64,000 nucleotides of DNA from Bolinopsis microptera (Eukaryota > Ctenophora > Tentaculata > Lobata > Bolinopsidae), in assembly GCF_026151205.1 (NCBI RefSeq), contig NC_087079.1, positions 4,297,230 to 4,361,229 of the forward strand, in the 5' to 3' direction. The position numbers and the translations under genes were made by a program. Every line of letters starts with the position of its first letter. Within the stretch, counting starts at the first letter, position 1. Below, in pieces: positions 24,724 through 51,328 of this stretch. The notes beneath the pieces were generated by a model. The model was given only the letters and a program-made list of their open reading frames with translations, did not search any database and had not been told where the DNA came from.

Positions 24724-26886
24724 TCAATCACGATTTAAATATTCAATGTTGATGCTTTGATAAAAGCGTTTAATTGTACGTTTTAAAACCATAAAAGACT
24801 GACCTGTTTGAATAGCTTGATATAAAAACCGTGCTCGCTCTTCGGCCCGGTCTTTAAAGAACAGATTACAGATCTTCGAGTTAAGCCTTACGGTGTATGC
24901 ATCCAAAAGGGCTGAAACGAATACAGCGACTTTGGTAAAGACCAGCTTTATTAAGTAAATGCTATCCGATTTCGAAGCTCTAGGTAAACACTCGGCAGTC
25001 GACAAATTGAATCCGCGAATATTCATGGTGGAGCTGCTGCTTTTGTTAAAGTTTCCAAAAGCTACATCGAACCCCACCCCTGCTTCCATTCCATCGTAGG
25101 TTATCCCGTACTCCGCGTTCTCACTGACTACCTGCATGGTCCGGACTAAGAAAAAATCCAGTGTGACTGCAGTCACCGCCACCAGGGTGAATATGAGAGC
25201 AGGTAAACTTTTCGCTAGAAGCTCTTTTCTTTCCAGCTCTGACAACTTTTTGTCAAATGTACTCCGGTATTTTTGTCTTTTTTCCCAATTTCGGATCGGA
25301 GTGAGTTTGTTCATCGTACGGCATCTTTTTGCGGTTTCCTTTCGCCAGAGTCTTTTCACGTTGGTGTCCACCAGAAAATTGTCAAAGGAATCTTTGAGGA
25401 AATAGTTCTTGATGTAGTGCCTTGCGTCTATTATGCAAAGGAGGACCAGTAAATACAAAAGCTTTTCAAAAATAACAATGAGCCTATGAAATACTTGAAA
25501 AGAAAGACGCAGTATGTTTTTCAAATTTTCCTTGATCTCCTCGATATTGTGACCCTTAAGTTCACCCATCAAATTGTCGGTGTTGATGTCAACAATATCG
25601 ACACCGTTCTTTATGTCGTTTATGGTATTGTTTAAAGTCCCTTTTATGCTTTCACTAATAGTATCTATCACTCCAAAATCAGGGGCAGAGCAATCTGTTA
25701 ACCCAAAAGTAAAAGAGCCAACAACTTTATCACACGCCTTTCCAAATGCTTGCCCTGCTTCTTTGATGTCCTTGAGCTTCTCCAAGGATGCAGTTACTTT
25801 TTCTTGAAGTCCCGTATGTTGCTCCGCCATCTCTTCTTGCATCTCAGTCAATATGTTCTCGAACTCTTCAATCATTTCCTCAAGATCATCATCGATAGTG
25901 GTCATCTGCTCAGTATAGTTGAGAGCTAGCTCCTCCATTTGTTCGTACATACAGACAAGGGACCTAACACCCTCCTCAACATTAGCTTCTATATTTCCTA
26001 TTGGACCTTTCACGAGAAGCCCAAAACCGATAGAGAGAAGAACTGCTCTTCCGCGTCCTGCTAGGAGTGGTGGAACCATCAACAAGAAAGTTGTTTTAAG
26101 GTTGAGGCTTAGGAAACTGCCCATGGAAACTGCCATTGCAGTTGCAGCTCCAACAGCAGCTTCAATACTCAACGTATGTTCTTTGGAGACTGAGAAGTTT
26201 GTCAAATTGTACGATCTAGTCTCATTTAGCTGAGAGCGTGAGTATTCCTCGGTCTCCAAGATCAGATTACAGATTACGAAGAATATGAATCCATATAGTA
26301 GGCCCAGTGGCACATCACTCAAATTTGACGTCACAAACTTCTCCATTTTCTTTTGAAGTGATAGTTTCTTAGCCTTTCTCTTACGCTTCCTGTACATGTC
26401 GATAGACTCGATAGAGCCAAAAAGATCGCTGCCGTCAGAGCTACTGTCAAGATCTTGACTTAGTGAGATGCGGTTAGGAGAAAGGTTCATCTGCCGTCTT
26501 ACTTGAGAAGGGGATGGTGGAACATCCAACCTTGGACGGCTAACTGCAGTTATTTTCTCTAACGTTACATTTCTTTTCTTCTTTATAGCAGTTGCAGACC
26601 CACTACTGGCCGAACTGGAGGAATTAGCATCGCTATCATTAGATTTTGTGAAATAGACTGATTTTTCAGCCTGCTTTGCGATCATTTGAGAGGATGGTCT
26701 AGCAGGAACAGGACTACTAGCAGGAACGCAGCTACTGACCGAGTTCACGGAACTTGCATCCGAATCTTTAGATGTTGACTTATGATGGGGCTTACATTTC
26801 CGTTGCTGTCTTGTCTGAGTACTAGTAGGAGAAGTCTTTCTCTCCAAAAAAGGACTTTTGACTTTTCCCGGCGTTTTGTTGACCAT
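24724..26886 (-). CDS. DC-STAMP-domain multipass membrane protein (DCST1/DCST2-like), main exon
   Basis: This exon resembles DCST1/DCST2, membrane proteins needed for sperm-egg fusion; human DCST1 also has a C-terminal RING-type region. About 190 N-terminal residues are polar, Ser/Lys-rich and presumably cytosolic. The first membrane segment is VPLGLLYGFIFFVICNLIL near 193-211. Alanine/glycine-rich helices follow, with the family-like GFGLLVKGPIGNIEANVEEG block. After an extracellular coiled-coil-like region comes the DC-STAMP domain: helix LLYLLVLLCIIDARHYIKNY, the basic RNWEKRQKY stretch, helix LPALIFTLVAVTAVTLDFFL and a final hydrophobic helix before ERARFLYQ. Read through, it stops at TGA 24724-24726. 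The exon could instead end at 24732 on a weak donor (AATC|GTGATT) and join, in phase, the zinc-binding exons at 24628-24541 and 17745-17508. Confidence 0.85.
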   Translation of the reverse strand: MVNKTPGKVKSPFLERKTSPTSTQTRQQRKCKPHHKSTSKDSDASSVNSVSSCVPASSPVPARPSSQMIAKQAEKSVYFTKSNDSDANSSSSASSGSATAIKKKRNVTLEKITAVSRPRLDVPPSPSQVRRQMNLSPNRISLSQDLDSSSDGSDLFGSIESIDMYRKRKRKAKKLSLQKKMEKFVTSNLSDVPLGLLYGFIFFVICNLILETEEYSRSQLNETRSYNLTNFSVSKEHTLSIEAAVGAATAMAVSMGSFLSLNLKTTFLLMVPPLLAGRGRAVLLSIGFGLLVKGPIGNIEANVEEGVRSLVCMYEQMEELALNYTEQMTTIDDDLEEMIEEFENILTEMQEEMAEQHTGLQEKVTASLEKLKDIKEAGQAFGKACDKVVGSFTFGLTDCSAPDFGVIDTISESIKGTLNNTINDIKNGVDIVDINTDNLMGELKGHNIEEIKENLKNILRLSFQVFHRLIVIFEKLLYLLVLLCIIDARHYIKNYFLKDSFDNFLVDTNVKRLWRKETAKRCRTMNKLTPIRNWEKRQKYRSTFDKKLSELERKELLAKSLPALIFTLVAVTAVTLDFFLVRTMQVVSENAEYGITYDGMEAGVGFDVAFGNFNKSSSSTMNIRGFNLSTAECLPRASKSDSIYLIKLVFTKVAVFVSALLDAYTVRLNSKICNLFFKDRAEERARFLYQAIQTGQSFMVLKRTIKRFYQSINIEYLNRD

Positions 26887-28135
26887 TACTTTGTGGCCTG
26901 CTCTCTTTGTGGGTCACTAAATGTTTAAAAGGTATCTTATGCTCGAACCTAGTAAGATGTGGTGGATAATTAATAAATGTTCACAGCTCGTACTCTCTGA
27001 GATTCGTGAAAATTAACATTTTACCGATAGTACAATTTGTACTACAAACTAAAGTTGCTGTTTGAACAATAATTGCACCGGTTAGCGGACGCTAAATTGT
27101 AGATTCCCATCAATCGTTGGCATTGCCCTTTAAAATTTAAAATTATAATTAATGATCGTTTTATGTTGGTCAAAATATCAAATAATGGTTCTTTATTCAT
27201 TGCATCCTTGGAGCGCTACAAAAATCATCAAGGGGTTGCTATTGTCAATTATTCAAATTTAAAAATTTAAATGACCGGACACCGTAGCCTGCGCCTGTGC
27301 AGCAGTGGTGATATGCAGCTAAAAGTTTGAAGAACAAAAGTCAAAAACGATGTTCGAAGACTGAAGGAATGGTTATTTACAAGTTAACATAAGTTGTTAG
27401 ATTAAATAAAATGGTGGTCGTGAAATCCGTGGTAGGTAATGTAACTCATGATAACATTTATCATGGTCCATTTCGTATAACAAATCAATCACTCGACAAT
27501 CATGTTCAACATAACATCAGCATCATAATTTGTTCAACGATTACTAATATCGGGAGCCAACTGCCAAGTCGGTGGTTGCAGTTGCACCATGCACTCACAA
27601 CAAAACGAGAAGTTTGTATGTTGTAAATGTAGCGCATCAATGATCAAGTAAATTGTAAAGCTAAAGAAAATCTTGAACTACTTAATGCTTAATTCAAATT
27701 GTATGCCTGGTGCCGCGCATTTGAAAGTGTAATTCAGTCAATCGTCAAATCGTGCAAACGTATGCCTAATCTCTATTCGGTTAATCATAATGAACATGAT
27801 AGCCTGAGGTCCCCAGGTATTGGTAAACCACTTCTAACCATTTTATACTTTTTTAGAAAAAGAAAGAGTTGATGAAAAAAATCGAATATCTTTGCCGTTA
27901 CGAAAGCATCTCATTTGAGATTCTTTAATCTTTATTGACACTATATAATATATTATTGAGCTATAATAATAATATTATTAAGCTCGTGCAGCTAATGTAA
28001 ACTTAAAATTTATTGATAGCGTATGGACAGCAAATTGCAGAACACGATATTATCGTACCTTTTAGAAAATCAGTGCGATTATAGTTTTGTAGTCAATTAA
28101 CTTGGACCGTGGACGGTAAACAGACAGAATTAATT
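26887..28135. other. Upstream region of the DC-STAMP-domain gene; no gene seen
   Basis: AT-rich, with only short open frames. A dispersed-repeat copy lies at 27764-27817. Any promoter for the minus-strand gene should lie just above 26887, but I see no clear TATA or initiator motif. Confidence 0.5.
27764..27817. repeat. Dispersed repeat, copy 1 (diverged)
   Basis: Contains CTAATCTCTATTCGG followed by GATAGCCTGAGGTCCCCAGG, shared with copies at 29082 and 29580. This is the most diverged of the three. Confidence 0.6.
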
Positions 28136-31000: not shown

Positions 31001-33279
31001 ATAACAATACCTGCGGTGTCGTTATTAACTACTGAAGCATAGTGTTATAGTAGCCATATCTTTTTGATTTATTTACGTCCCTTATTTGAAAAAGTTGGTG
31101 CAATTGTGCCCCCTTTTGCTCAGAATTACAGGGCTGTTCACTATCCCGGCTCAAGGTCAAAAGGAAATCGCGGCAAGTGCGGAATCGCGATATTCCCATT
31201 CTCCGCGACAAATTTGTTATTAGTGAGATTTGGAACAATGAGAACATTGATCAATTGTTAAGACAATTAATCTATATTATAACTTTATAACATACCTTGC
31301 GAACACAATATGGACAAAAACTCATGAGGGAATTTCTACGAACATAGTGATAGTGAAAAACTTATACAAAGGATGCCATAATGCTGGCAACATGCCGCAA
31401 CCTCTAAATAGCCACCTCTAACTCTAAGTCGTACACACAAACCAACTAGCAAGTTATTACCCTACGAACCAGTCTACCCCTAATTCATAATTCTATTCGT
31501 GCAAATATATTATTTTTCGTTGCGATTTTCGAGATTCTCGCCACGATTTTGCCTAGTTTGGCTTGTTGCGGCGCCGCGATTTTTGGCCTAAATAATCGCG
31601 ATTTTCTTTCGTCCTTGTCCCGGCTGCTCATTGTTTTCAATATTCAAATAGCTGCATAGACAACGACGAAAGGAAAATAATTTCAGTCTTTAAAATTAGA
31701 GTTTAACTTACAGTTTGATTGAAACTTTAATTAAAACTTTAAGGACAAACAAATATGTACTTGTGTAATTGTATATTCAATAAGTCAATTTTACTCTGGA
31801 TCTATAATGATACCGTCTTTAGCAAACTCATGACCTCAAACACTATACAAATCCAAAATGGAGTTTTTCGTTAATTCTAGAGGCGTTAGTGTTATTCAAC
31901 TTTTACAGTTGTTCGAGACACGTTTAATTTGCTATTGTATTACTATATTATGCTTAATACAACCAGCAAACTTTTAATGCCAATGGTGGCATTCGTCCTT
32001 TTAGTTAAAGGCATAAATTTATAAATGTATGAACTTCTTTCATTCAAATTTCTTATTGTTTCTGAATAGACTCAGTAAAGACAAATTCTAATGGAAATAA
32101 ATAGCTGAATAACGTATCGACATTTCTACGTCATACTCATATTCTCAAATCATTTGTTATATAGTAGTGTTGAAAGTATTATAAATGTATGAACTTCTTT
32201 AAGGATTGCTAAAATGAGACCTTTTAGCGGAACCCCTTAGTAGCCCTTAAAGTTAACTAAACTGAAACAAATGTCTCTTCTCCGCTTATAATTAAGATCA
32301 CAGATTGATCCCTCCTAAAAACAATCAATAAGATATGCTGGGACCAACTAATTCTAAAGAAATTTCACTTTGTACATACTGATCGTGTACGTACCGCGTG
32401 ACATTCGCCCATTGTTATTATTACAGTTCTGCCCGTATTTTAACAAATATTTGTTAAAATACCGGGAGACAGTCACTATTTTTGCTTGATCTTTGAATGA
32501 TGACGTTTGACAGACTGAATACGATTTTTGTTTTAAACACATTCTTACTTTGTAAGAAAATGTTTCTGAGTATGTGCAAAGGTAGTCGCTACGTTTATGT
32601 ACATGTCGTTTATTTAGGACCATACTGATGGTGATTTTGCAAACTAATGTAGTTTAACGCATCAAATAACTTACAAGGTTAATGTGTTACTATTATACCG
32701 AGTTTCTTAATTGCATCGGTTAAGAATCAACTATTATTATTATTAACAATAATCAGCTATATTATCACTTTCGACCGTTTTCAATTCTTCATTCTGCTTT
32801 ACTACACCGTTGGCGTTTTAAATGATTCCTAAATATATTCTACCCTCGTTGAAAGTTTAGTGTCATCTGGCTAAGGGAAAATCAACTGCAAAGAGCAATG
32901 GACAATATAATCTGATTGGGCCAATCGTTTTCCGTAACCTCAACTGTGCCTTTCATTTGTTAATGTATTCAGTATTATCGAGTTTTTAACCAAAACTCAA
33001 AATTGGGTAGAGTGGAATGAGGCCCTTGTCTCCTTTTTCAAACAAAAGAAAATTATGACAAGTTAAATTACTGTTACCGTACCGAAACACAAAATCATAC
33101 CGAGAATGAAATCGGTCGATCGCTTTTCTCGTTCATAAATCATAATTGGAAATTTTGTAAGAATCTCACCATGATTAATTTGTATTCCTGTCATCTATAA
33201 CATCGAATTAGAATATTGTGAACTAAAACTAAACCTACTAAAGTTAAACGACTTTTGATGAGTCTTAAAAAAATTAAAA
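31001..33279. other. Gene-free AT-rich stretch
   Basis: No supported exon, RNA or array. The short open frames here lack motifs and splice-consistent partners. Confidence 0.5.
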
Positions 33280-33995
33280 ATGAGTAAAAGGAGTAGAAGG
33301 GGTAGAAGGGGTAGAAGGGGTAGAAGGGGTAGAAGGGGTAGAAGGGGTAGAAGGGGTAGAAGGGGTAGAAGGGTAGAAGGGGTAGAAGGGGTAGAAGGGT
33401 TAGAAAGGGTAGAAGGGGTAGAAGGGGTAGAAGGGGTAGAAGGGGTAGAAGGGGTAGAAGGGGTAGAAGGGGTAGAAGGGTAGAAGGGGTAGAAGGGGTA
33501 GAAGTAGAAGGGGTAGAAGGGGTAGAAGGGGTAGAAGGGGTAGAAGGGGTTAGAAGGGGTAGAAGGGTAGAAGGGGTAGAAGGGGTAGAAGGGTAGAAGG
33601 GGTAGAAGGGTAGAAGGGGTAAGAAGGGTAGAAGGGGTAGAAGGGGTAGAAGGGGTAAAGGGTAGAATGGTAGAAGGGGTAGAAGGGTTAGAAGGGTAGA
33701 AGGGGTAGAAGGGGTAGAATGGTAGAAGGGGTAGAAGGGGTAGAAGGGGTAAAAGGGGTAGAAGGGGTAGAAGGGTAGAAGGGGTAAAAAAGGCAAAAGG
33801 GGTAGAAGGGGTAAAAAAGGTAAAAAAGGTAAAAGGGGTAGAAGGGGTAAAAAAGGTAAAGGGGGTAGAAGGGGTTAAAAAGGTAAAAGGGGTAGAAGCG
33901 GTAAAAAAGGTAAAAGGGGTAAAAGGGGTAAAAGGGGTAGAAGGGGTAAAAAAATAAAAAAGGTAAAAAAGGTAAAAAAGGTAGAATGGGTAACG
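33280..33995. repeat. 9-bp purine-rich minisatellite (GGTAGAAGG)n
   Basis: About 80 units of AGAAGGGGT/GTAGAAGGG with single-base indels. It shifts near 33780 into an AAAAAGGTAAAAGG variety. The top strand is almost pure purine apart from one T per unit. Long open frames on both strands (FYP, TPS and RRG repeats) come from the 9-bp period and are not genes. Confidence 0.97.
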
Positions 33996-34440
33996 GTTAT
34001 TCTTGCCAGCACTGTGATACTCTAATCGTGCTGATAAGTTAATTTGTTCAGGTTTATCCACTGCTAATGTTGCTCATAAATGTAATCGAACACGAGGTTG
34101 CGACCTTCTTCAATTTTTCTTTAATCGTCTGTGTTTGTAAATAACTATAAAGCGATATATTGAATCCATCAAATTCATTTCATGCCGTTTATAACAATCT
34201 TCTTTGCTGCTTAGATTACAAATGTTAATGATTTTGAGATCAAATGCTTGGTCAAAATTTGTATTTTCTAAGAATCGCCTTATCAGGATTGAACATTGAA
34301 AGACTGATCTCATTCGGATAACAGTACTACTTTATTTCTAGAAGCGCTATCAGATCATCAAATAGATTCCTCACCATCGCGCAGGAAATCCTTTATTGTG
34401 GGAAGCATGTGTCAAAACTAAACTAAGAAATTAGACAAAC

Positions 34441-37400
34441 ATGTCGAATATCACGGTGGTTGTCCTCATATTCCTTTTCCAAACATGCCTCACTGCTTCA
34501 ACCGCTCTCCGGCCACACATCTTGTTCATCATGGCAGACGATATCGGCTACCAGGACGCGGGTTTCAGAGGCAGCTTCATTGCCACCCCCAATATAGACG
34601 CGTTGGCCACTGAAGGGGTAATCCTGAATCACCATTACGTCATGCCCCAGTGTTCTCCCACCAGATCGGCCTTCATGACCGGTAGAAATGGTATTAAAAC
34701 TGGATCCTGGTACGGCAACATGAAGCCAGGACAGATAGGTGGCCTGGAGGATAGGACAATAGGGGAGATGATGCAGGAACATCAGTACAAGACCCATTTG
34801 GTGGGGAAGTGGCATCTTGGCATGTCCAGTCCAGATTATACCCCTGTCAACAGGGGGTTTGATACCTTCCTGGGCATGTACCTAGGCTCCGGCGACTACT
34901 TCAAACATCAGAACGGACGGGGTTTTGATATGAGGTTCAACTACCGGCAACCAGAAAACGGGCTCATAGTTGATAAGATTTTAAAAAGCTATGCAAATGT
35001 TCATAGCACGGAGATTTACACGAACAGAACGATTGACATTTTAGAACAGCATGTTAACCAATATGGCACGGGCAGTGAGGAACCTTTGTTTTTATTTTTA
35101 TCCTACCAAGCACCGCACGGACCTTACCAAGTCCCCGAAAGATATAGAGCCAACCTACCGCCATTTTTCGCAGACAAATCCAGCCAACTTAGAACATATG
35201 CAGGCATGGTAAACTTCATGGACGAAAGTATAGGGAGGATACACTCAACCCTGAACCAACTGAACCTGCTGGACAACACATTGATCGTGTTTACCAGTGA
35301 TAATGGAGCTATTTTAGACGGACCCGGTAGTAATTTCCCCCTCAGGGGTGGTAAGAAGGATTACTACGAGGGGGGCGTCAGGGCTCTGGCTTGGGTTAAT
35401 AGTCCTCTGTTGGATAAAACCGGATATATCAACAAACAGCTCCATCACATCTCTGATTGGTACCCAACGTTTGAGTTCTTAGCCACTGGAGTGGATAATA
35501 ATCCGGCAAGTGGCAGGCGGAAGAAAAAGAACAGAAATTCCTATTCCGCTATTGATGGGGTGAACATATGGGATTCAATTTCTGACAATTGGGCTTGCAG
35601 AGAAACAGTGAGTATAGAATTTGAAGATCTTTTTTCTTTTAATGATGATAACTGATGATTATTGTCGTTATTTGCAGCCATTCGGTTAATTATTATAATA
35701 TGGTAATTTTATTTTCCCTGGTTCGATTTTGGAAACCATTTTATTAAATTATTCGTTATGAGTTACCGCCGCCGGTTACCGCCGGTTACCGCGGCCCTGG
35801 TTATTCTTTAATTGTAACCCAATAATGCAACATGCTCCCTCGACTAGTGGCTACCATCAATATTCATTATCGGACCTAACAGTGAGAAATGTAAACAGCT
35901 CATGGTTGTTGACCGGTACTTACATAAGGGAACCTGTTAACCTGTTAAGAAACTTGGTGTAAGGTGCATGTGTATGTGTGTTGTGTGCGTCAGCATATTT
36001 GACGAAAATATGTCCTTATCTTGGTTCTATTTTAGAATTCTCAGAGGATTTCGAGGGCGAGGGGACCAGGAAGGATTTACAAAAAAACTTTGATCTCCAC
36101 TGTGTATTGCGCATCAGCAATTAGCATGGACATTTTCAACTTTGACTCATGTCAACTTTGCAACATGCACCAAGCGTTTTATTGTGCCTGCGGAACTGGA
36201 TAAAACCGGAGTGACCTAATGCATATTTTCGTGGTTTTTTATCTCTTTGATCTCTGAATATTTATAATATAACCGGCACCAATCAATCTCTACTCATTCA
36301 ATTTGCCACTCGCCCTCCTTCATCTTCTATTTCCCCATATCCTCTTCTCTAAGGGTCGCCACACCTCAGAGTCAGGGTCGCCACACCTCAGAGTTAGGGT
36401 CGCCACACCTCAGAGTTAGGGTCGCCACACCTCAGAGTCAGGGTCGCCACACCTCAGAGTTAGGGTCGCCACACCTCAGAGTCAGGGTCGCCACACCTCA
36501 GAGTCAGGGTCGCCACACCTCAGAGTCAGGATCGCCACACCTCAGAATCAGGGTCGCCACACCTCAGAGTTAGGGTCGTCACACCTCAGAGTTAGGGTCG
36601 CCACACCTCAGAGTTAGGGTCGTCACACCTCAGAGTCAGGGTCGCCACACCTCAGAGTTAGGGTCGCCACACCTCAGAGTTAGGGTCGCCACACCTCAGA
36701 GTTAGGGTCGTCACACCTCAGAGTCAGGGTCGCCACACCTCAGAGTTAGGGTCGCCACACCTCAGAGTTAGGGTCACCACACCTCAGAGTTAGGGTCGCC
36801 ACAACTCAGAGTTAGGGTCGCCACACCTCAGAGTTAGGGTCGTCACACCTCAGAGTTAGGGTCGCCACACTTCAGAGTTAGGGTCGCCACACCTCAGAGT
36901 TAGGGTCGCCACACCTCAGAGTTAGGGTCGCCACACCTCAGAGTTAGGGTCGCCACACCTCAGAGTTAGGGTCGCCACACCTCAGAGTTAGGGTCGCCAC
37001 ACCTCAGAGTTAGGGTCGCCACACCTCAGAGTTAGGGTCGCCACACCTCAGAGTTAGAGTCGCCACACCTCAGAGTTAGGGTCGCCACACCTCAGAGTTA
37101 GGGTCGCCACACCTCAGAGTTAGGGTCGCCACACCTCAGAGTTAGGGTCGCCACACCTCAGAGTTAGGGTCGCCACACCTCAGAGTTAGGGTCTCCACAC
37201 CTCAGAGTTAGAGTCACCTAACCTCAGAGTTAGGCCAAGTATCTACACAGTATCCTTTTTTGGACCACGCAGGTAAAGCCTCTGTAAAAAAGGAAACTGT
37301 TTGTATCGGACACATATCAGCTCATTTTTCTGTATATTCGATTCCTCGATTTTCCCCAAATTTACGGTAACATTTCAGGTGTTAATAAATATACAGCGAA

Positions 37401-40400
37401 CAGACATGTACAACTCGAACGCAAGGAGTACTAAACGTGATAAGATGACAGTACACAAAGAGGGGAGTAATCTGGCGAGACCTGAGAACGGCACGGAAAT
37501 AATAGCTGATAACACGGATGATGATGTCAATATTACGGAGGAGTCCGGAGATGGAGCCCGTGATACTTCTACAAGTGATACTGGAGAAGAGGCAAATGGT
37601 GGCAAGATGAGGGGGTCAGGGAAAGTGCCCCCTTTTAAAGATTTGGTGGTCTACATATGGAAATCATGGAAAATGATCATTGGTAAGTCGATAAATAATT
37701 TGTATCCCTTGTTTTTATGTTGGCAACTTAGTTATTTTCTCTTTTTTGTAAATCAAAATCTTTTAAATGATTAATATCTTTCGGTTAATCTTTATTGGCT
37801 TCAACAATACCTATGCAATTCAATAGTACCAACGATCATCACTGGCTACCTCACAATATAAGATAAGGTTCTGTGACACAATACAGTCCTTCTCAGATCT
37901 GATCGTTCTGCCGTTTAGTGACACAATACAGTCCCTTCTCAGATCTGATCGTTCTGCCGAGAGATTTTTGATTCAGTGGAAAAATTAAAAATGTGGAAAT
38001 TATGCAACTGTGACTGTGCTCAGCCAGTCATGAGATTTTAAGATTCTTGGAATACTTCATCATCCTAAAAATAAGTGCAGTAACTGTTACAAAGCAGTTA
38101 ACCGTTGACCAGTTATTGTTAGCGTCAACAGTAAATACGGGATACGGTAAATAGCATAAGCAAATTAAATTCTGAACAAATTAAGCAAACAAGATCAGTT
38201 CGTGTTGATGCGTTACTACAGTCCTTAATCTCCAACCCTTAATTAACGGGAACCCTTCATACTCCCACAATTATTGATAACTACCGGCCTGCTAGTATTA
38301 AGACAAATCGTTTGGCGTTGGTACAACTAAAACCCTGACTCAAGTCCAACCAGTGCAACCCTCTTACTTCAAAACTACGAGTTGATTACTTTGTGCCTCA
38401 TTTACCGCCCTATAGTTACCGCCCTAGTTACCACATAGAACGATCGTATCTCATAAACCAATAAGGCTGGTCATTGATTTTCAAACACTGAAATGGTGAC
38501 CGATCGTCTTCGGTCCCATGCATACTGCATAGCTCAGCAACCTGGTCAGATATTGTTATTAAAAAGGAACAAAATGATCCCTCAATTCCTACTGAATATG
38601 TGACTAGTACTAAAAATGTTAAATCTACTACACGTATTATTATCACATTTTTCCTTTATTCAATTGAAAACTTATCAGGAAACGAAAAATCAATCTACGC
38701 TGGCTGGAAGAACAAAAACGAGTGGACAATCTGGAACTCGGAGGGATACCGGAATGACTCCCTAGACGACACTGACAACAGAGTCATACTTTATGAACTT
38801 AGGACAGATCCCAGGGAAAAGAGGAATATAGCTTACAAATACCCTGGAATGGTCGATGAGATGATCAGCAGGTGAAATTCAAATATATTTCGTTATTATG
38901 AGAAACCTCAAAATGAGCTTATGTTATACATTATACATTATACATTATACATTATACACTATACATTATACATTATACATTATATGCTATATAGAATACG
39001 CCATTGTACGTGGGTCTATCTCCATAAATTTTAGCTGAACCTCAATTTCCCCAGGATCAACCGGAATCACTGGGCCGATGTGAAGCCAATATCCAAGTTC
39101 AAGTACAGCGGTCGAGGTATTTCCCAACAGTCGGTCTGGAGACCTTGGTTAAAATCAACAGATGGCAACGTCATGTACCGCCTTTATGACGAAATTATTA
39201 CTAAAACTGATGACGATGATACTGATTCAGGAAATACTGAAACTGATTCAGAAGATACTGAGTCAGGTGACACTGATGCAGGAGATGCTGAAATTGATTC
39301 AGAGGATGCTGAAATTGATTCAGAGGATGCTGAAATTGATTCAGAAGATACTGAAACTGATTCAGAAGATACTGAAATTGATTCAGAAGATGCTGAAATT
39401 GATTCAGAAGATACTGAAACTGATTCAGAAGATACTGAAATTGATTCAGGTTACACTGATTCAGGTGACACTGATTCAGGAAATACTGTTTCGGGTGACA
39501 CTTATTCGGCTGATAGTGAAATTGATTCAGAAGATGCTAAAATTTATTCAGAAGATGCTGAAATTTGTTCAGAAGATACTGAAATTGATTCAGGTAACAC
39601 TGATTCAGGTGATACTGATTCAGGAGATACTGTTTCAGGAGATACTGATGCAGGAGATGCTGAAATTGATTCAGAAGATGCTGAAATTGGTTCAGGAGAT
39701 ACTGAAACTGATTCAGAAGATACTGATTCAGGTGACACTTATGCAGGAGATGCTGAAATTGATTCAGAAGTTGCTGAAATTGATTCAGAAGATGCCGAAA
39801 TTGATTCAGAAGATACTGAAATTGATTCAGGTGACACTGATTCAGAAGCTGCTGAAATTGATTCAGGTGACACTGATTCAGGTGACACTGATTCAGGAAA
39901 TACTGTTTCGGGTGACACTTATTCGGCTGATAGTGAAATTGATTCAGAAGATGCTAAAATTTATTCAGAAGATGCTGAAATTTATTCAGAAGATACTGAA
40001 ATTGATTCAGGTAACACTGATTCAGGTGATACTGATTCAGGAGATACTGTTTCAGGAGATACTGATGCAGGAGATGCTGAAATTGATTCAGAAGATGCTG
40101 AAATTGGTTCAGGAGATACTGAAACTGATTCAGAAGATACTGATTCAGGTGACACTTATGCAGGAGATGCTGAAATTGATTCAGAAGTTGCTGAAATTGA
40201 TTCAGAAGATGCCGAAATTGATTCAGAAGATGCTGAAATTAATTCAGGAGATACTGTTTCGGGTGACACCCATTCGGGTGATAGTGAAACTGATTTAGAA
40301 GATACTGATTCAGGTGACACTGATGCAGGAGATGCTGAAATTGATTTAGAAGATGCTGAAATTGGTTCAGGAGATACCGAAACTGATTCAGAAGTTACTG

Positions 40401-42577
40401 ATTCAGGTGACACTGATGCAGGAGATGCTGAAATTGATTCAGAAGATGCTGAAATTGGTTCAGGAGATACTGAAACTGATTCAGAAGATACTGATTCAGG
40501 TGACACTTATGCAGGAGATGCTGAAATTGATTCAGAAGTTGCTGAAATTGATTCAGAAGTTGCTGAAATTGATTCAGAAGATACTGAAATTGATTCAGGT
40601 GACACTGATTCAGAAGCTGCTGAAATTGATTCAGGTGACACTGATTCAGAAGATGCTGAAATTAATTCAGGAGATACTGTTTCGGGTGACACCCATTCAG
40701 GTGATAGTGAAACTGATTTAGAAGATACTGATTCAGGTGACACTGATGCAGGAGATGCTGAAATTGATTTAGAAGATGCTGAAATTGGTTCAGGAGATAC
40801 CGAAACTGATTCAGAAGTTACTGATTCAGGTGACACTGATGCAGGAGATGCTGATTCAGGTGACACTGATGCAGGAGATGCTGAAATTAATTCAGAATAT
40901 ACTGTTTCGGGTGACACTGATGCAGGTGATAGTGAAACTGATTTAGAAGATACTGATTCAGGTGAAATTGATTTAAAAGATGCTGAAATTGATTCAGGAG
41001 ATACTGTTTCGGGTGACACTCATTCAGGTGATAGTGAAACTGATTTAGAAGATACTGATTCAGGTGAAATTGATTCAGAGGATGCTGAAATTGATTCAGA
41101 AGATGCTGAAATTGATTCAGAAGATGCTGAAATTAATTCAGGAGATACTGTTTCGGGTGACACCCATTCAGGTGATAGTGAAACTGATTCAGAAGATACT
41201 GATTCAGGTGACACTGATGCAGGAGATGCTGAAATTGATTTAAAAGATGCTGAAATGGGTTCAGGAGATACCGAAACTGATTCAGAAGTTACTGATTCAG
41301 GTGACACTGATGCAGGAGATGCTGATTCAGGTGACACTGATGCAGGATATGCTGATTCAGGTGACACTGATGCAGAAGATGCTGAAATTGATTCAGAGGA
41401 TGTTGAAATTGATTCAGAAGATGCTGAAATTGATTCAGAAGATACTGAAATTGATTCAGGTAACACTGATTCAGGTGACACTGATTCAGGAGATACTGTT
41501 TCAAGTGACAATTATTCAGGTGATAGTGACACTGATGCAGGAGATGCTGATCCAGGTGACACTGATGCAGGAGATGCTGAAATTGATTCAGAAGATGCTG
41601 AAATTGATTCAGAAGATGCTGAAATTTATTCAGAAGATACTGATTCAGGTGACACTGATGCAGGAGATGCGGAAATTTATTCAGAAGATGCTGAAATTGA
41701 TTCAGAAGATGCTGAAATTTATTCAGAAGATATTGAAATTGATTCAGGTGACACTGATTCAGGAGATGCTGAAATTGATTCAGAAGATGCTGAAATTTAT
41801 TCAGAAGATACTGATTCAGGTGACACTGATGCAGGAGATGCGGAAATTTATTCAGAAGATGTTGAAATTGATTCAGAAGATGCTGAAATTGATTCAGAAG
41901 ATACTGAAATTGATTCAGGTAACACTGATTCAGGTGACACTGATTCAGGAGATACTGTTTCAAGTGACAATTATTCAGGTGATAGTGACACTGATGCAGG
42001 AGATGCTGATCCAGGTGACACTGATGCAGGAGATGCTGAAATTGATTCAGAAGATGCTGAAATTGATTCAGAAGATGCTGAAATTTATTCAGAAGATACT
42101 GATTCAGGTGACACTGATGCAGGAGATGCGGAAATTTATTCAGAAGATGCTGAAATTGATTCAGAAGATGCTGAAATTTATTCAGAAGATATTGAAATTG
42201 ATTCAGGTGACACTGATTCAGGAGATGCTGAAATTGATTCAGAAGATGCTGAAATTTATTCAGAAGATACTGATTCAGGTGACACTGATGCAGGAGATGC
42301 GGAAATTTATTCAGAAGATGCTGAAATTGATTCAGAAGATGCTGAAATTTATTCAGAAGATATTGAAATTGATTCAGGTGACACTGATTCAGGAGATACT
42401 GTTTCGGGTGACACTTATTTTGGTGATAGTGAAACTGATTCAGGAGATTCTGTAACTGATGCAGGAGATACTGATTCAGGAGATATTCATTCAGATGGAA
42501 TATCTGATTTAGCACTAGGTGATATCGATACAGATAAAGATGAAACTGAAATGCATGAAACTATGCAAAGTTCATAG
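34441..42577 (+). CDS. Secreted arylsulfatase B-like sulfatase with giant acidic repeat tail (about 1,728 aa)
   Basis: Exons 34441-35607, 37379-37682, 38679-38871 and 39055-42577 (TAG) join in phase with GT-AG introns. Sulfatases hydrolyse sulfate esters; arylsulfatase B relatives act on sulfated glycans in lysosomes or outside the cell. Residues 1-20 form a signal peptide (VVVLIFLFQTCL core). The metal site MADDIGYQD, the formylglycine motif C-S-P-T-R in PQCSPTRSAFMTGR, GKWHLG, TSDNGA and PLRGG...YYEGGVRA are present, so the enzyme is probably active. Exon 2 has IWKSWKMIIG, matching the family's R-H-G-x-W-K-L block, after an acidic insertion. Exon 3 carries LYELRTDPREKRNIA (family L-F-D-I-x-x-D-P-x-E). 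The last exon runs NHWADVKPIS...WRPWL, the normal sulfatase end, then about 1,115 residues of D/E/S/T/G repeats. Typical family length is about 530 aa. Confidence 0.9.
36353..37235. repeat. 22-bp minisatellite, about 40 copies (sulfatase intron 1)
   Basis: Unit GGGTCGCCACACCTCAGAGT plus TA or CA, with few variants. Most units contain the telomere-like hexamer TTAGGG, and each contains CACACCTCAG, which resembles a 3' splice acceptor. The array ends about 140 bp before the true acceptor of exon 2 (37377-37378). Confidence 0.97.
38924..38985. repeat. 9-bp repeat (ATTATACAT)n in sulfatase intron 3
   Basis: About seven short AT-rich units in the 183-bp intron between exons 3 and 4. Confidence 0.85.
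39226..42480 (+). repeat. Coding tandem repeats of the sulfatase tail (21-bp and 15-bp units)
   Basis: Units encode EIDSEDA-type heptads and DSGDT-type pentads, organised into longer repeated blocks; for example a 459-bp block starting at 41402 recurs at 41861, and a 417-bp block at 39484 recurs at 39901. All unit lengths are multiples of three and no stop occurs over more than 3.2 kb, unlike the intronic arrays in this window, which drift in length. That constraint supports translation. The other open frames over this stretch are by-products of the period. Confidence 0.93.
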
Positions 42578-42842
42578 ATGAGAATCGAAACTGGATTTTA
42601 CTAGGGTTTTATTACTTTCTAGACAATGTTTCATTGTCAAATGTCAATATAATATACAATTTAATTGGGAATTATAATTCAGACTGTTTAGTGTTATCTT
42701 ATAAGATAGTAAGGTAAAAAAACATTGTTTCGATGAAATGAACGTTTCAATATTACTTGATCTGTATTAAGGGGAAACCGTGCGCAAGTTTCATACACAA
42801 GTTAGGTAAAATTAAATTAATTACCTTATTAAGTTAATTAAT

Positions 42843-43207
42843 TTAGGAGATACTGATTTAGGAGATACTGATTCAGGAGATACTCATTCAGATGGAATAT
42901 CTGATTTAGCACTAGGTGATATCGATACAGATAAAGATGAAACTGAAATGCATGAAACTATGCAAAGTTCATAGATGAGAATTGAAACTGGATTTTACTA
43001 GGGTTTTATTACTTTCTAGACAATGTTTAATTGTCAATAATATACAATTTAATTGGGAACTATAATTCAGACTGTTTAGTGTTATTTTATTAGATAGTAA
43101 GGGAAAAACCATTGTTTTGATGAAATGAACGTTTCAATATTACTTGATCTGTATTAAGGGGAAACCATGCGCAAGTTTCATGCACAAGTTAGGTAAAATT
43201 AAATTAA
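42843..43207. repeat. Duplicate of the sulfatase gene 3' end and 3' untranslated region
   Basis: The last coding stretch and stop (from GATGGAATATCTGATTTAGC at 42494) recur at 42891, an offset of 397 bp, followed by the same downstream sequence (GGATTTTACTAGGG ... TTAAGGGGAAACC). The copy has diverged by substitutions and small deletions and lies beyond the real stop, so it is presently non-coding. Confidence 0.9.
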
Positions 43208-43955
43208 TTACCTTAACAAAATAAATAAAAATTATTTATCATTCAAAATTATTAAATATTCTAAAAACCTATTTTGTCCTGTTTTCTGCTAAGTCTAGCA
43301 GTTAGTTTTTTAGTCAATTCTACTGCTTTAACACAATGCAGCTAGAATTAACGTATATACGACGAGAATTGCAAATGTTCATCTACCTCTGCCTTCTAAC
43401 GCTACCAGTACCTATTAGTTATGTTACTAGTTAAGTTACTAGTTAATTTATTCGAATATTGTTTAATACGGCACCTGCAAAACCCGACTTTACATTAAAT
43501 CTAGCTGGTAAGCATATTCTGAATCTGCTCTAGAATAGTAATTTCAGTTCGTTCGTTTTAGTCGTGGTGATTTTAGGATCCGTAGAAGGTAATTTGGATA
43601 CGATGAAAGCGCTCGGCATCAACTTCAACGTGAGCAGTGGACACTTTACATTGTTGGAATTTAGCCAAATACTTGTCGTCAGTAGTATCCTCGAGGTTGT
43701 ATTGTTTTGCAGCAAGTCCACACATTCAGGCCTTTCTGAAGTTACAATTTTATTATTGTCAACACAACAACAAAACAACAAAAAAAGAGGACAAATAAAC
43801 ATCGGCCTCTTTGCGGTAAAATATTTTTAACGCATAAAATATCTACAACAGTTTGGTAAGCGGACCCTATCCTTATAACTACTTGAAGAGATACTATCCC
43901 TACTAGTAGTAGTAGTTATGACTTATGAAGTGGTAAGGGTTAGTCCCGGTTAGGA

Positions 43956-48239: not shown

Positions 48240-49979
48240 GTAAGTATTATAGAAGGTTACATTTTAGGAATCCAAATTATGATTATAATCGTTACGATCT
48301 GTAAGTAGGATCTAGTTACGAATCGAATCACAACCAGCCACCTTCAGGTAGTGATCTCCACGATCACTGCGAATTTGTAATCATAACGATATGTAAATGT
48401 TGACGAGCCGATTCGTTAATATGATATTAACTATGGTAAGTTTTTATTAATCAATGCTCCTAAGTAAATCTAGATGAGTACTCAAACGCCGCCGCCAAGT
48501 ACTTCGAAGACAATGACCATTGCTTGATCACAAGTCTGGTTAGTTTGCCGTATATAATAATAGACACACTAAAGTTAACCACTGATCCCTGAGGCTAGAA
48601 CCTTCGAAACTTAAAGTCCTTTATCGTTCGCTGCCATCAGATCTATAGTCCATAAACAACGAAATAATCCGGTGAATAAACACTTGCTCAACACGAATTT
48701 GTGTTTTAACATACTTTAACAAGTCCCGAGGGCGTATCCACATTCCACAATCTGACCCAATGCCAGCAGGTAGTAAACATACCTTATATACCTCAATAAA
48801 TACAACCTCTGAAGAGAGCGTGCTCCTCCGAACCCTCTGCTAAGAAGTACACCAAATGTCCTCTCCAAGATAATTAGATCACTTCTCACCCTGTATGATA
48901 AGATGAATCTGATACACTATGAATAATACACGCATTCGCACAGAATTAGGAAGTCTTTTGCCCGCGAACCTTCAAGTTGGTTGTAGCTTTGTTTCACGTT
49001 GGTAGTAACTTTCTTTCGCCGCTTCTCTTTATCATTCTCTTTATGCTGAGTCTGATTCTTTAGAATTCGATCAACAAGTTTAACAGAAACGTGATAAAGG
49101 TGCATAAAGGTTTCCCGGGGTCGATCATTAGTCAAAATCTTTATTATCTCTTTAAATTCATAGTTGTTGATGATTATGGCAGTAATTTTTCGTATATTTA
49201 TATTCTTATTTATTAACACTTCGATATAAATATGTGACACATAAACTGTTTGGGAAACGTGTGACAGCCTTGCAATTATGAACTATTTTTAGTTATAAAT
49301 ACCTTCCACAATGAACATAATATTTAGGAAATATATCCGCCATCACAATGAGGGTTAAGGTCCCTCAGGAATCACTCCATGAGCTTCGTACCAAAGTCCG
49401 ACTGGTCCGACGCGTTATTAGGTTTATTGGACTGTGGTCACCTCGCTGAACCTCCAATTAAAGGTCTCGGTGGTCGGTGATGCAAACAACACACTCGTTA
49501 AAAATACCTCCATCAAGGAAAATTTGCGGAGTTCTTAAATATTTTTTACCCTTCGGAATTATGAATCACAATGTGTAGGTCACTGATCGGGTTGACGTTT
49601 CGAAAGAATAGGAATTTGTACGATTTTCATTGGTGCCAAGTGGTATCGGGGAAATTTTCCTCTTAGTCTCAGAAAGGAAGGTCTTGATTGCTCTCGTCAG
49701 CGATCATGCTCAATACTCGACTTACTCGACTTAGGGCGGCTTATGCTCAATAGTAATTTGTAATTGTAAGAATCTTGATGACGAAACATGAAAGCGTAAG
49801 ATCTGTAGATCAAGTTTGTAACTCGTTATCCGTGTTTTGTAACCTTAGTTTTACGTCGCGAGATATAGGTATAAATGTCCCTTATTTACTAGCTACTTAT
49901 TTTTACCTTAATTTGTTATATTCCTGTACAAAAAATAAATTTTCAAATGTATGTGTATCGTGTAATAAGTCGAGTAAAT
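48240..49979. other. Mostly non-coding; a possible minus-strand exon
   Basis: A charged open frame on the minus strand at about 49240-48917 (FKEIIKILTNDRPRETFMHL, then KENDKEKRRKKVTTN) is somewhat protein-like, and a sequence with a good acceptor and donor occurs at about 48840-48778. I could not chain them in phase, so no gene is claimed. Confidence 0.3.
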
Positions 49980-50990
49980 AGTACAACATTTACACAGACC
50001 CCAAAAAGTACAACATTTACACAGACCCCAAAAAGCACAACATTTACACAGACCTCAAAAAGTACAACATTTACACAGACCCCAAAAAGTACAAAATTAC
50101 ACAGACCTCAAAAAGTACAACATTTACACAGACCCCAAAAAGTACAACATTTACACAGACCTCAAAAAGTACAACTTTTACACAGACCCCAAAAAGCACA
50201 ACATTTACACAGACCTCAAAAAGTACAACATTTGCACAGACCCCAAAAAGTACAACATTTACACAGACCTCAAAAAGTACAACATTTACACAGACCCCAA
50301 AAAGCATAACATTTACACAGACCTCAAAAATTACAACATTTACACAGACCCCAAAAAGTACAACATTTACACAGACCCCAAAAAGTACAACATTTACACA
50401 GACCCCAAAAAGTACAACATTACACAGACCCCAAAAAGTACAACATTTACAGTTTACACAGACCCCAAAAAGTACAACATTTACACAGACCCCAAAAAGT
50501 ACAACATTTACAGTTTACACAGACCCCAAAAAGTACAACATTTACACAGACCCCAAAAAGTACAACATTTACACAGACCCCAAAAAGTACAACATTTTCA
50601 CAGACCCCAAAAAGTACAACATTTACACACACCTCAAAAAGTACAACATTTACACAGACCCCAAAAAATACAACATTTACACAGACCCCAAAAAAAGAAA
50701 ACATTTACACAGACCCCAAAAAGTACAACATTTACACAGACCCCAAAAAGTACAACATTACACAGACCCCAAAAAGTACAACATTACACAGACCCCAAAA
50801 AGTACAACATTTACACAGACCCCAAAAAGTACAACATTTACACAGACCCCAAAAAGTACAACATTTACACAGACCCCAAAAAGCACAACATTTACACAGA
50901 CCTCAAAAAGTACAACATTTACACAGACCCCAAAAAGTACAAAATTACACAGACCTCAAAAAGTACAACATTTACACAGACCTCCTACCT
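49980..50990. repeat. 27-bp minisatellite, about 37 copies
   Basis: Unit ACAACATTTACACAGACCCC followed by AAAAAGT, with frequent one-base deletions (ACATTACACAG) and a CCCC/CCTC alternation that forms a dimeric higher-order repeat in the left part and at the right end. Some units carry an extra AGTTTACA. The indels break frame, so the overlapping open frames are not genes. Confidence 0.96.
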
Positions 50991-51328
50991 GCTACTGACA
51001 TAGAGTTGAGAGGTCAAATAAGGTAAAGAAATGGCGAAATATTCTGCGATGGATCCATATGACAACCACTAAAAGTGATTGCAGTATATGAATATCCACC
51101 AGAAGTATATTGGTTTTATTAAATCAATAATAAGAAAATCCATTGCTTCCATTGGAATTTGGAAGGTTTGACAAAAACAGAAATTGAATTCATTCTCTGA
51201 ATGGAAGGCAAAGGTTTTAGCTTTATATTTAATTGTAATTTATATTATATTAATCTATTTTAGGCATTTATTTATGTTATTTCTTTACTACATAGTATAA
51301 ATTGTTACATAACATAAAATCTGCAGCC

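What the first reader, a model, noticed from the sequence alone, without database searches (positions are those of the whole stretch)
39055..42577. Arylsulfatase fused in frame to a roughly 1,100-residue Asp/Glu/Ser/Thr repeat tail
The last sulfatase exon continues without a stop from the normal family C-terminus into more than 3.2 kb of heptad (EIDSEDA-like) and pentad (DSGDT-like) coding repeats. The protein has a signal peptide and intact catalytic motifs, so it would be a secreted or lysosomal enzyme carrying a huge polyanion. The repeats recall acidic secreted proteins that bind calcium or mineral, and Ser-Glu pairs could be phosphorylated. I know of no described sulfatase with such a tail. 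Unit lengths stay multiples of three over the whole exon, which argues for translation.
Basis: partly seen in the sequence, partly recalled or inferred. Interest (0 to 1): 0.87.

Follow-up and report, generated by a model that had tools for sequence, protein, structure and literature searches.

The report
Comb-jelly sulfatase with huge acidic tail
A comb-jelly gene for a sulphate-removing enzyme runs on, in one unbroken reading frame, into about 1,100 extra acidic amino acids built from a DNA repeat; the gene model holds up, but the tail's exact sequence shows no sign of being preserved by selection and its use is untested.

Summary
Four exons (34441-35607, 37379-37682, 38679-38871, 39055-42577) join into a 1,728-residue frame: a signal-peptide-like start, an arylsulfatase-B-type domain with the ten catalytic residues I checked, and a 1,123-residue tail (468 D/E, 5 K, 0 R) of 15- and 21-base coding units. 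The genome is a ctenophore's, probably Bolinopsis microptera. None of 16 sulfatase paralogues fetched from it has a tail; all 16 stop 3-49 residues after the W-x-P-W block. Orthologues in other ctenophores and transcripts could not be searched.

The frame is kept: no stop and no frame break, unlike other open frames and noncoding arrays nearby. But changes between units look neutral (11 synonymous of 50, 13.2 expected; charge not preserved). I read the tail as a translated minisatellite, like dentin phosphoprotein's repeat: a disordered polyanion whose length and charge may matter but whose sequence does not. Fam20C-type phosphorylation is unlikely (2 S-x-E sites); a glycosaminoglycan-carrying tail is not supported (enzyme families not found, weak controls). 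Splicing inside the tail is a live rival: 44 donor-like sites, all in one phase, and a duplicated 3' end that reads on in that phase.

The parts
34441..35607 (+). Exon 1: signal-peptide-like start (no predictor run) and catalytic sulfatase domain, aa 1-389 (D33, D34, C71, R75, K123, H125, H226, D287, N288, K305 present)
   Evidence: Pfam Sulfatase E 1.9e-50; best PDB sequence match 1fsu, N-acetylgalactosamine-4-sulfatase, E 2.8e-81; positions; that these ten are catalytic is recalled from ARSB
36352..37234 (+). Noncoding 22-bp x 40 minisatellite inside intron 1
37379..37682 (+). Exon 2: continues the C-terminal subdomain; holds an acidic insert (from 37511) longer than the variable region of the nine paralogues printed
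38679..38871 (+). Exon 3: C-terminal subdomain
   Evidence: weak second 1fsu stretch; Pfam Sulfatase_C only E 0.058, under its cut-off
39055..39205 (+). Exon 4, 5' part: end of the sulfatase fold, including the WRPWL block from 39137
39206..42487 (+). Acidic tail; repeat units of 15 and 21 bases at 39224-42487, with longer duplications inside (459-base period at 41352-42405, 98%)
42488..42577 (+). Non-repeat C-terminal 29 residues and stop codon TAG
42852..43215 (+). Tandem 94% copy of the gene's 3' end (original 42455-42828), open in the same C-terminal peptide; an acceptor-like TTTAG|G lies just before it at 42846/42847

Best explanation
A ctenophore gene for a secretory-pathway, ARSB-type sulfatase whose last exon contains a coding minisatellite. 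A short acidic stretch after the normal C-terminus (...TKTDDDDTDSG...) was multiplied by slippage and unequal exchange in steps of 15 and 21 bases, all multiples of three, so the frame and the C-terminal peptide survived. The product would be a normal sulfatase domain trailing a disordered polyanion of about 116 kDa and roughly -460 charges. I think the tail acts by bulk physics: it holds Ca2+/Mg2+ counter-ions, swells and repels, and so affects packing in granules, diffusion or retention in jelly or mucus, without a defined sequence. SHOWN: gene model, catalytic residues, repeat anatomy, frame upkeep, neutral-looking unit substitutions, no tail in the 16 paralogues fetched. INFERRED: the route of expansion, transcription, translation through the tail, secretion, disorder, cation binding, any benefit.
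For: One open CDS with GT-AG introns. Sulfatase domain by Pfam and PDB sequence comparison. The genome holds FGE-family matches, the family that activates sulfatases. 0 stops in 1,091 codons (558 one-step-to-stop changes available) against 9, 24 and 9 stops in the three other frames that the unit leaves open (451, 734, 450 available). The tail parses into 176 units without a frame break (0 of 175 steps), against 19 of 243 steps in eight other arrays of the window and 18 of 129 in the three more diverged ones. The C-terminal peptide shows 0 of 90 differences between the two tandem copies against 10 of 241 in the 3' UTR, Fisher p 0.067. Tail charge and hydropathy lie far on the disordered side of the Uversky boundary; AlphaFold2 without an alignment gave mean pLDDT 47 on 300 tail residues, consistent with disorder but no proof.
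Against: No transcript or peptide evidence. No excess of synonymous change among units: 11 of 50 against 13.2 expected; 0 stops against 1.9 expected is not significant on its own. Charge is not preserved (16 charge-lowering changes against 14.4 expected). The tail units were parsed in the translation, whereas the control arrays were measured on DNA, so the two counts are not made alike; indels copied with units are not independent and the arrays differ in age, so the p-values are too small. Counting stops as separate events (about ten by my reading) instead of 17 contexts weakens that test to about p 0.03 (my arithmetic). With all aligned coding bases included, coding against UTR divergence of the two 3' copies is 3 of 123 against 10 of 241, p 0.56. 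44 donor-like sites in the tail.
Confidence: 0.55

Rival explanations
1. The repeat is largely removed by splicing, or is not translated. The tail holds many CAG|GTRA donor-like sites, and the duplicated 3' end begins after TTTAG|G in the phase that restores the same C-terminal peptide, so mature protein may carry only a short acidic tail.
For: 44 CAG|GTRA sites in the tail, 7 of 9 consensus matches like the three modelled donors, all 44 in one phase, and copy 2 read in that phase gives the same C-terminal peptide and stop; only 12 such sites in the other 60,628 bases of the window's + strand. The copy keeps the C-terminal coding stretch without a difference (0 of 90) while the UTR differs at 10 of 241 sites. 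Unit substitutions look neutral.
Against: The donor-like sequence is part of the repeat unit, so its number and phase are no independent evidence. The acceptor-like AG is itself unit sequence, and no splice predictor was run. The absence of stops and frame breaks over 3.2 kb would need another reason.
Confidence: 0.22
2. The tail is a selected functional polyanion, for example a calcium- or mineral-binding module that places the sulfatase in matrix, in mucus or on the calcareous concretions of ctenophore lithocytes.
For: Composition (468 D/E of 1,123) and length. Ctenophore lithocytes hold membrane-bound calcareous concretions (PMC10954788, passages seen). Dentin phosphoprotein is a precedent for an acidic coding repeat in a mineralised tissue (PMC2803795, abstract start and passages seen).
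Against: No sign that amino-acid identity or charge is preserved among units. No Pfam family on exon 4 and no PDB sequence match of the tail at E 0.1. Nothing ties this gene to lithocytes.
Confidence: 0.17
3. The tail is a glycosaminoglycan carrier: its 75 Ser-Gly pairs in an acidic setting are xylosylated, making a sulfatase-proteoglycan that goes beyond SULF2.
For: 75 SG, 39 DSGD. SULF2, a sulfatase, carries chondroitin sulfate at a Ser-Gly preceded by an acidic cluster (PMC13405426 abstract and section 4; PMC10721642 abstract).
Against: No match in this genome to Xylo_C, Branch, CHGN or Glyco_transf_64, although no control rang for three of the four and only a bacterium for Branch, and matches come exon by exon. 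None of the 75 sites has five acidic residues in the upstream seven as SULF2's cluster has; 59 have 3 or 4. In SULF2 added SG repeats lowered occupancy (PMC13405426 section 4).
Confidence: 0.03
4. Assembly artefact or pseudogene: repeat length or the joint to the sulfatase is wrong, or the gene is dead.
For: The array holds long, nearly identical duplications (459-base period 98%, 171-base period 99%), which assemblers can miscount. The C-terminal part is only 21-30% identical to paralogues.
Against: Ten of ten catalytic residues checked, 389 open codons in exon 1 at 37-50% identity to paralogues, GT-AG borders in phase.
Confidence: 0.03

Closest known systems
Arylsulfatase B (N-acetylgalactosamine-4-sulfatase; PDB 1fsu)
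   Same: Best PDB sequence match over the catalytic domain (E 2.8e-81) and a weak second stretch (10.7 bits) ending at the same W-x-P-W block
   Different: The 1fsu chain ends at that block; here 1,141 more residues follow, and exon 2 carries an acidic insert
Dentin phosphoprotein repeat of DSPP (SIBLING family)
   Same: Acidic Ser/Asp coding tandem repeat that expands in frame by slippage and exchange, varies in length, and ends 25-35 residues before the stop there and 29 here (PMC2803795 passages)
   Different: Unit SSD (9 bp) against D-S-G/E-D-T/A (15/21 bp); not attached to an enzyme (recalled); no homology claimed
SULF1/SULF2 endosulfatases
   Same: Sulfatases with a large hydrophilic region; SULF2 carries a chondroitin sulfate chain there (PMC13405426 section 4; PMC10721642 abstract)
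   Different: In SULF2 that region is cut by furin-type proteases and is not described in the section read as a tandem repeat; here a C-terminal tandem-repeat tail on an ARSB-type enzyme
ARSB-like sulfatase paralogues of the same genome (16 loci fetched)
   Same: 37-50% identity over the aligned part of aa 25-389; all 16 have a W/Y/F-x-P-W block
   Different: No tail in any of the 16. Ten of the eleven best-scoring (L001-L010) run in one frame to their C-terminus (L009 with one stop inside), whereas this gene has three introns there

Membership tests
Type I sulfatase, ARSB-like | Sulfatase domain (PF00884) | tested here: met
   E 1.9e-50, 172.3 bits against a cut-off of 25
Type I sulfatase, ARSB-like | Formylglycine motif C-x-P-S/T-R and metal/sulfate-binding residues (roles recalled) | tested here: met
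   C71-S-P-T-R75, D33, D34, K123, H125, H226, D287, N288, K305
Type I sulfatase, ARSB-like | C-terminal subdomain ending in W-x-P-W | tested here: met
   WRPWL at aa 583-587, aligned with the paralogues' block; Pfam Sulfatase_C under its cut-off
Type I sulfatase, ARSB-like | Sulfatase activity and substrate | not testable with these tools
   needs an enzyme assay; FGE family present in the genome
SIBLING / dentin phosphoprotein | SSD repeat next to RGD and BMP1 motifs in the SIBLING gene cluster (passages of PMC2803795) | tested here: not met
   unit is D-S-G/E-D-T/A on a sulfatase gene; it may work like one, it is not one
Fam20C-phosphorylated acidic secretory protein | Many S-x-E sites (motif recalled) | tested here: not met
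   2 S-x-E in the tail
Fam20C-phosphorylated acidic secretory protein | A Fam20C kinase in the genome | tested here: inconclusive
   no match, but no control rang
Glycosaminoglycan-bearing sulfatase (SULF2-like) | Ser-Gly with an upstream acidic cluster | tested here: inconclusive
   75 SG; 59 of 75 have 3 or 4 acidic residues among the seven at -11 to -5, none five as in SULF2
Glycosaminoglycan-bearing sulfatase (SULF2-like) | Xylosyltransferase and chain-making enzymes in the genome | tested here: inconclusive
   no match to 4 of 4 families, with weak controls
Folded calcium-binding repeat (RTX and the like) | Known repeat family or predicted fold | tested here: inconclusive
   no Pfam match on exon 4; no PDB sequence match of the tail; AF2 without alignment mean pLDDT 47

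The most novel reading that the evidence does not exclude
A secreted ctenophore sulfatase is expressed with its complete 1,100-residue polyanion, and the tail itself is functional: an entropic, cation-loaded brush (about -460 charges) that anchors or buffers the enzyme in jelly, mucus, secretory granules or lithocyte concretions, selected for length and charge rather than sequence; an enzyme that evolved its own polyelectrolyte within one lineage.
Probability: 0.2. Interest if true: 0.72.

Novelty: new variant of a known kind. Interest (0 to 1): 0.45.

Why it matters
If translated in full, it is a clear natural case of an enzyme acquiring a very large disordered polyanion by repeat expansion, in the phylum placed as sister to other animals (PMC10232365, title and passages seen). 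It allows a direct test of how much an added acidic tail changes a secreted enzyme, and of whether coding minisatellites are kept for bulk properties or merely tolerated. The result that frame is kept while unit changes look neutral separates these two questions.

Tried and rejected
Fam20C phosphorylation and a glycosaminoglycan tail: see rivals and membership test. Folded calcium-binding repeat: no support. Ferlin_C hit on exon 2 (E 0.033, 14.5 bits against a cut-off of 29.4): taken as chance, since the same residues align with the paralogues' ...RW..WKLL.G block. Copies of the tail elsewhere in the genome: the protein search listed 25 matches, 16 inside this tail and 9 elsewhere at 27-44% identity (150 of 278 candidates scored), read as other acidic low-complexity sequence and not looked at further. 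The 3' end was found at 2 places only, both here. The unit-substitution test was run with a narrower unit definition (175 units, 51 changes, 11 synonymous; also on the 21-base units alone, 27 changes, 5 synonymous, 7.3 expected) and a wider one (176 units, 50 changes). Edges of more than two changes were dropped (1; not counted), and the wider run left out two unparsed 7-residue units and two 3-residue partial units. COX1 search to identify the animal: no match. The 18S search failed. Of the 81 sulfatase match rows (one gene can give several rows) I fetched 16 loci; the others, including an open frame of 745 codons at C13:9390076 (33% match), were not examined for tails.
Full report
WHAT IS THERE. 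The frame 39035-42577 (+) has 1,180 codons. It joins three upstream exons with GT-AG borders and matching phases: 34441-35607, 37379-37682, 38679-38871, then 39055-42577. The CDS has 5,187 bases and one stop, giving 1,728 residues. The start (MSNITVVVLIFLFQTCLTAST) reads like a signal peptide; no predictor was run. Exon 1 is a sulfatase by Pfam (E 1.9e-50), and the best PDB sequence match of the core is 1fsu, N-acetylgalactosamine-4-sulfatase, that is arylsulfatase B (E 2.8e-81). Ten residues that I recall as catalytic in ARSB are present. The core ends in the WRPWL block at aa 583-587; the acidic tail runs from aa 606 to 1728.

THE TAIL. 1,123 residues: 301 D, 167 E, 161 S, 116 T, 110 G, 96 A, 83 I, 5 K, 0 R; computed charge about -462, mass about 116 kDa. 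The repeat at 39224-42487 was read in the translation as 176 units: 82 of 15 bases (mostly GAT TCA GGA/T GAT/C ACT) and 94 of 21 bases, the same kind with a two-codon prefix, usually GAA ATT; two 7-residue units and two 3-residue partial units were not parsed. It contains higher-order duplications, for example a 459-base period at 98% and a 171-base one at 99%. The last 29 residues are not repeat. Tail composition lies on the disordered side of the charge-hydropathy boundary (0.369 against 0.561). AlphaFold2 without an alignment gave mean pLDDT 47 on 300 tail residues and DSSP gave nothing, which is consistent with disorder but does not prove it.

WHICH ANIMAL. The genome held as G000 has 264.65 Mb in 232 contigs; the sulfatase matches lie on C1-C3, C5-C8, C10-C13 and C115, the glutamate-receptor matches on C1-C9 and C12. 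A glutamate-receptor frame from it (L018) has as best PDB matches the ML032222a receptor (I recall: of the ctenophore Mnemiopsis leidyi), ahead of kainate receptors; another (L017) gave no such match among the 60 shown. A paper's Table 1 gives Bolinopsis microptera 265 Mb, 13 chromosomes, 346 scaffolds, N50 20.8 Mb, and Mnemiopsis leidyi 248 Mb, 13 chromosomes (PMC11797021, passages seen); the Bolinopsis assembly with 13 chromosome-scale scaffolds is from PMC10232365 (passages seen). So: a ctenophore, probably B. microptera by size; the scaffold number (346 against 232) does not match, and no ribosomal or mitochondrial marker was obtained.

IS THE FRAME KEPT? (a) Stops. The coding frame has 0 stops in 1,091 codons with 558 single changes that would make one. 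Three other frames are also open in the consensus unit; they carry 9, 24 and 9 stops (4, 9 and 4 distinct contexts) with 451, 734 and 450 possible changes. The last two frames are closed by the unit itself (290 and 141 stops). At the other frames' rate one expects about 5.8 contexts in the coding frame; merging related contexts into about ten events lowers this to about 3.4 (my arithmetic). (b) Indels. 0 of 175 unit steps break the frame; in eight other arrays of the window 19 of 243 spacings differ from the unit by a number of bases that is no multiple of three (spacings; Fisher 4e-5), in the three more diverged ones 18 of 129 (Fisher 1e-7). The tail was parsed in translation and the others on DNA, indels are copied with the units, and the arrays differ in age, so these p-values are too small. 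(c) C-terminus. The gene's 3' end is tandemly duplicated (94%). Between the copies the non-repeat coding stretch differs at 0 of 90 sites and the UTR at 10 of 241 (p 0.067); if the repeat part is included, coding is 3 of 123 and the difference vanishes (p 0.56).

IS THE SEQUENCE KEPT? No sign of it. A minimum spanning tree of the unit types gave 50 changes: 11 synonymous (13.2 expected), 19 charge-neutral replacements (18.6), 16 that lower acidity (14.4), 4 that raise it (1.9), 0 stops (1.9); none departs significantly (the narrower unit set agrees, 11 of 51). Codon positions 1 and 2 changed more often than position 3 (19, 19, 12).

RELATIVES. 81 match rows to the core were listed in the genome. 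I fetched 16 loci. All 16 have a W/Y/F-x-P-W block and a stop 3-49 residues after it; L009 has one further stop inside its frame. None of the 16 has a tail. L001-L010, ten of the eleven best-scoring paralogous matches, run in one frame through the positions where this gene has three introns. Identity to the target is 37-50% over the aligned part of aa 25-389 and, L009 apart (6 aligned residues), 21-30% in the C-terminal part.

HOW IT MAY WORK. Activation by FGE is plausible (FGE-family matches). Fam20C-type phosphorylation is unlikely: 2 S-x-E sites, no Fam20C match (no control rang). A glycosaminoglycan tail is attractive because SULF2 is a sulfatase with a chondroitin chain at an acidic Ser-Gly site (PMC13405426 abstract and section 4; PMC10721642 abstract), but it is not supported: Xylo_C, Branch, CHGN and Glyco_transf_64 gave no match, and none of the 75 Ser-Gly sites has five acidic residues in the upstream seven as SULF2 has. 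In three of those four searches no control rang, so absence is not shown. What remains is bulk electrostatics: a cation-binding, swelling chain. This is inference. The best evolutionary parallel is the dentin phosphoprotein repeat, which expands in frame, varies in length, and ends 25-35 residues before the stop codon (PMC2803795, passages seen).

THE RIVAL TO TAKE SERIOUSLY. The unit contains CAG|GTRA; 44 such sites lie in the tail and score 7 of 9 like the gene's own modelled donors. All 44 are in one phase, and the duplicated 3' end, read in that phase from just after TTTAG at 42846, gives the same C-terminal peptide and stop. The rest of the window's + strand has 12 such sites in 60,628 bases. 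Splicing inside the tail would shorten the protein without losing its end. All of this follows from the unit's own letters, so it shows a possibility, not a use; only transcripts can decide.

LITERATURE. Searches for ctenophor* with arylsulfatase (4 papers listed), Mnemiopsis with sulfatase (4 papers), and at least four of arylsulfatase, acidic, repeat, C-terminal extension, aspartate-rich (5 papers) listed no paper whose title or abstract start describes such a protein; for these I saw listings only. The library lacks most subscription journals.

VERDICT. A real gene model and an unusual architecture, best filed as an ARSB-type sulfatase with a coding minisatellite tail. Interest is moderate: the strange part rests on one genome, without transcripts or orthologues, and the unit-level test finds no selection on the peptide.

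Noticed in passing
window 36352-37234: Intron 1 of the sulfatase gene holds a 22-bp x 40 noncoding minisatellite (95% matches); the window is rich in such arrays.
   Followed up: partly
window 42455-42828 and 42852-43215: Tandem duplication of the gene's 3' end; the downstream copy keeps the C-terminal reading frame without a difference in 90 bases.
   Followed up: yes
L001-L010 against window 34441-42577: Ten of the eleven best-scoring paralogues run in one frame where this gene has three introns: intron gain here or retrocopies there.
   Followed up: no
L009: One sulfatase paralogue has a stop codon inside an otherwise continuing frame, so it may be a decaying copy.
   Followed up: no
window 1359-2855: Reverse-transcriptase frame (PF00078, E 7.9e-34), from a retroelement.
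   Followed up: no
window 24727-26913, - strand: Frame of 729 aa with a DC-STAMP-like domain (PF07782, E 1.9e-22).
   Followed up: no
G000 (search over the whole genome): No match to Xylo_C, Branch, CHGN, Glyco_transf_64 or Fam20C; if real, much of the glycosaminoglycan toolkit is missing although ARSB-like sulfatases are many. Controls were weak.
   Followed up: partly
window 33195-34073 and 49978-51003: Minisatellites without a gene around them also give long open frames (292 and 341 aa), a caution for reading repeat ORFs as genes.
   Followed up: partly
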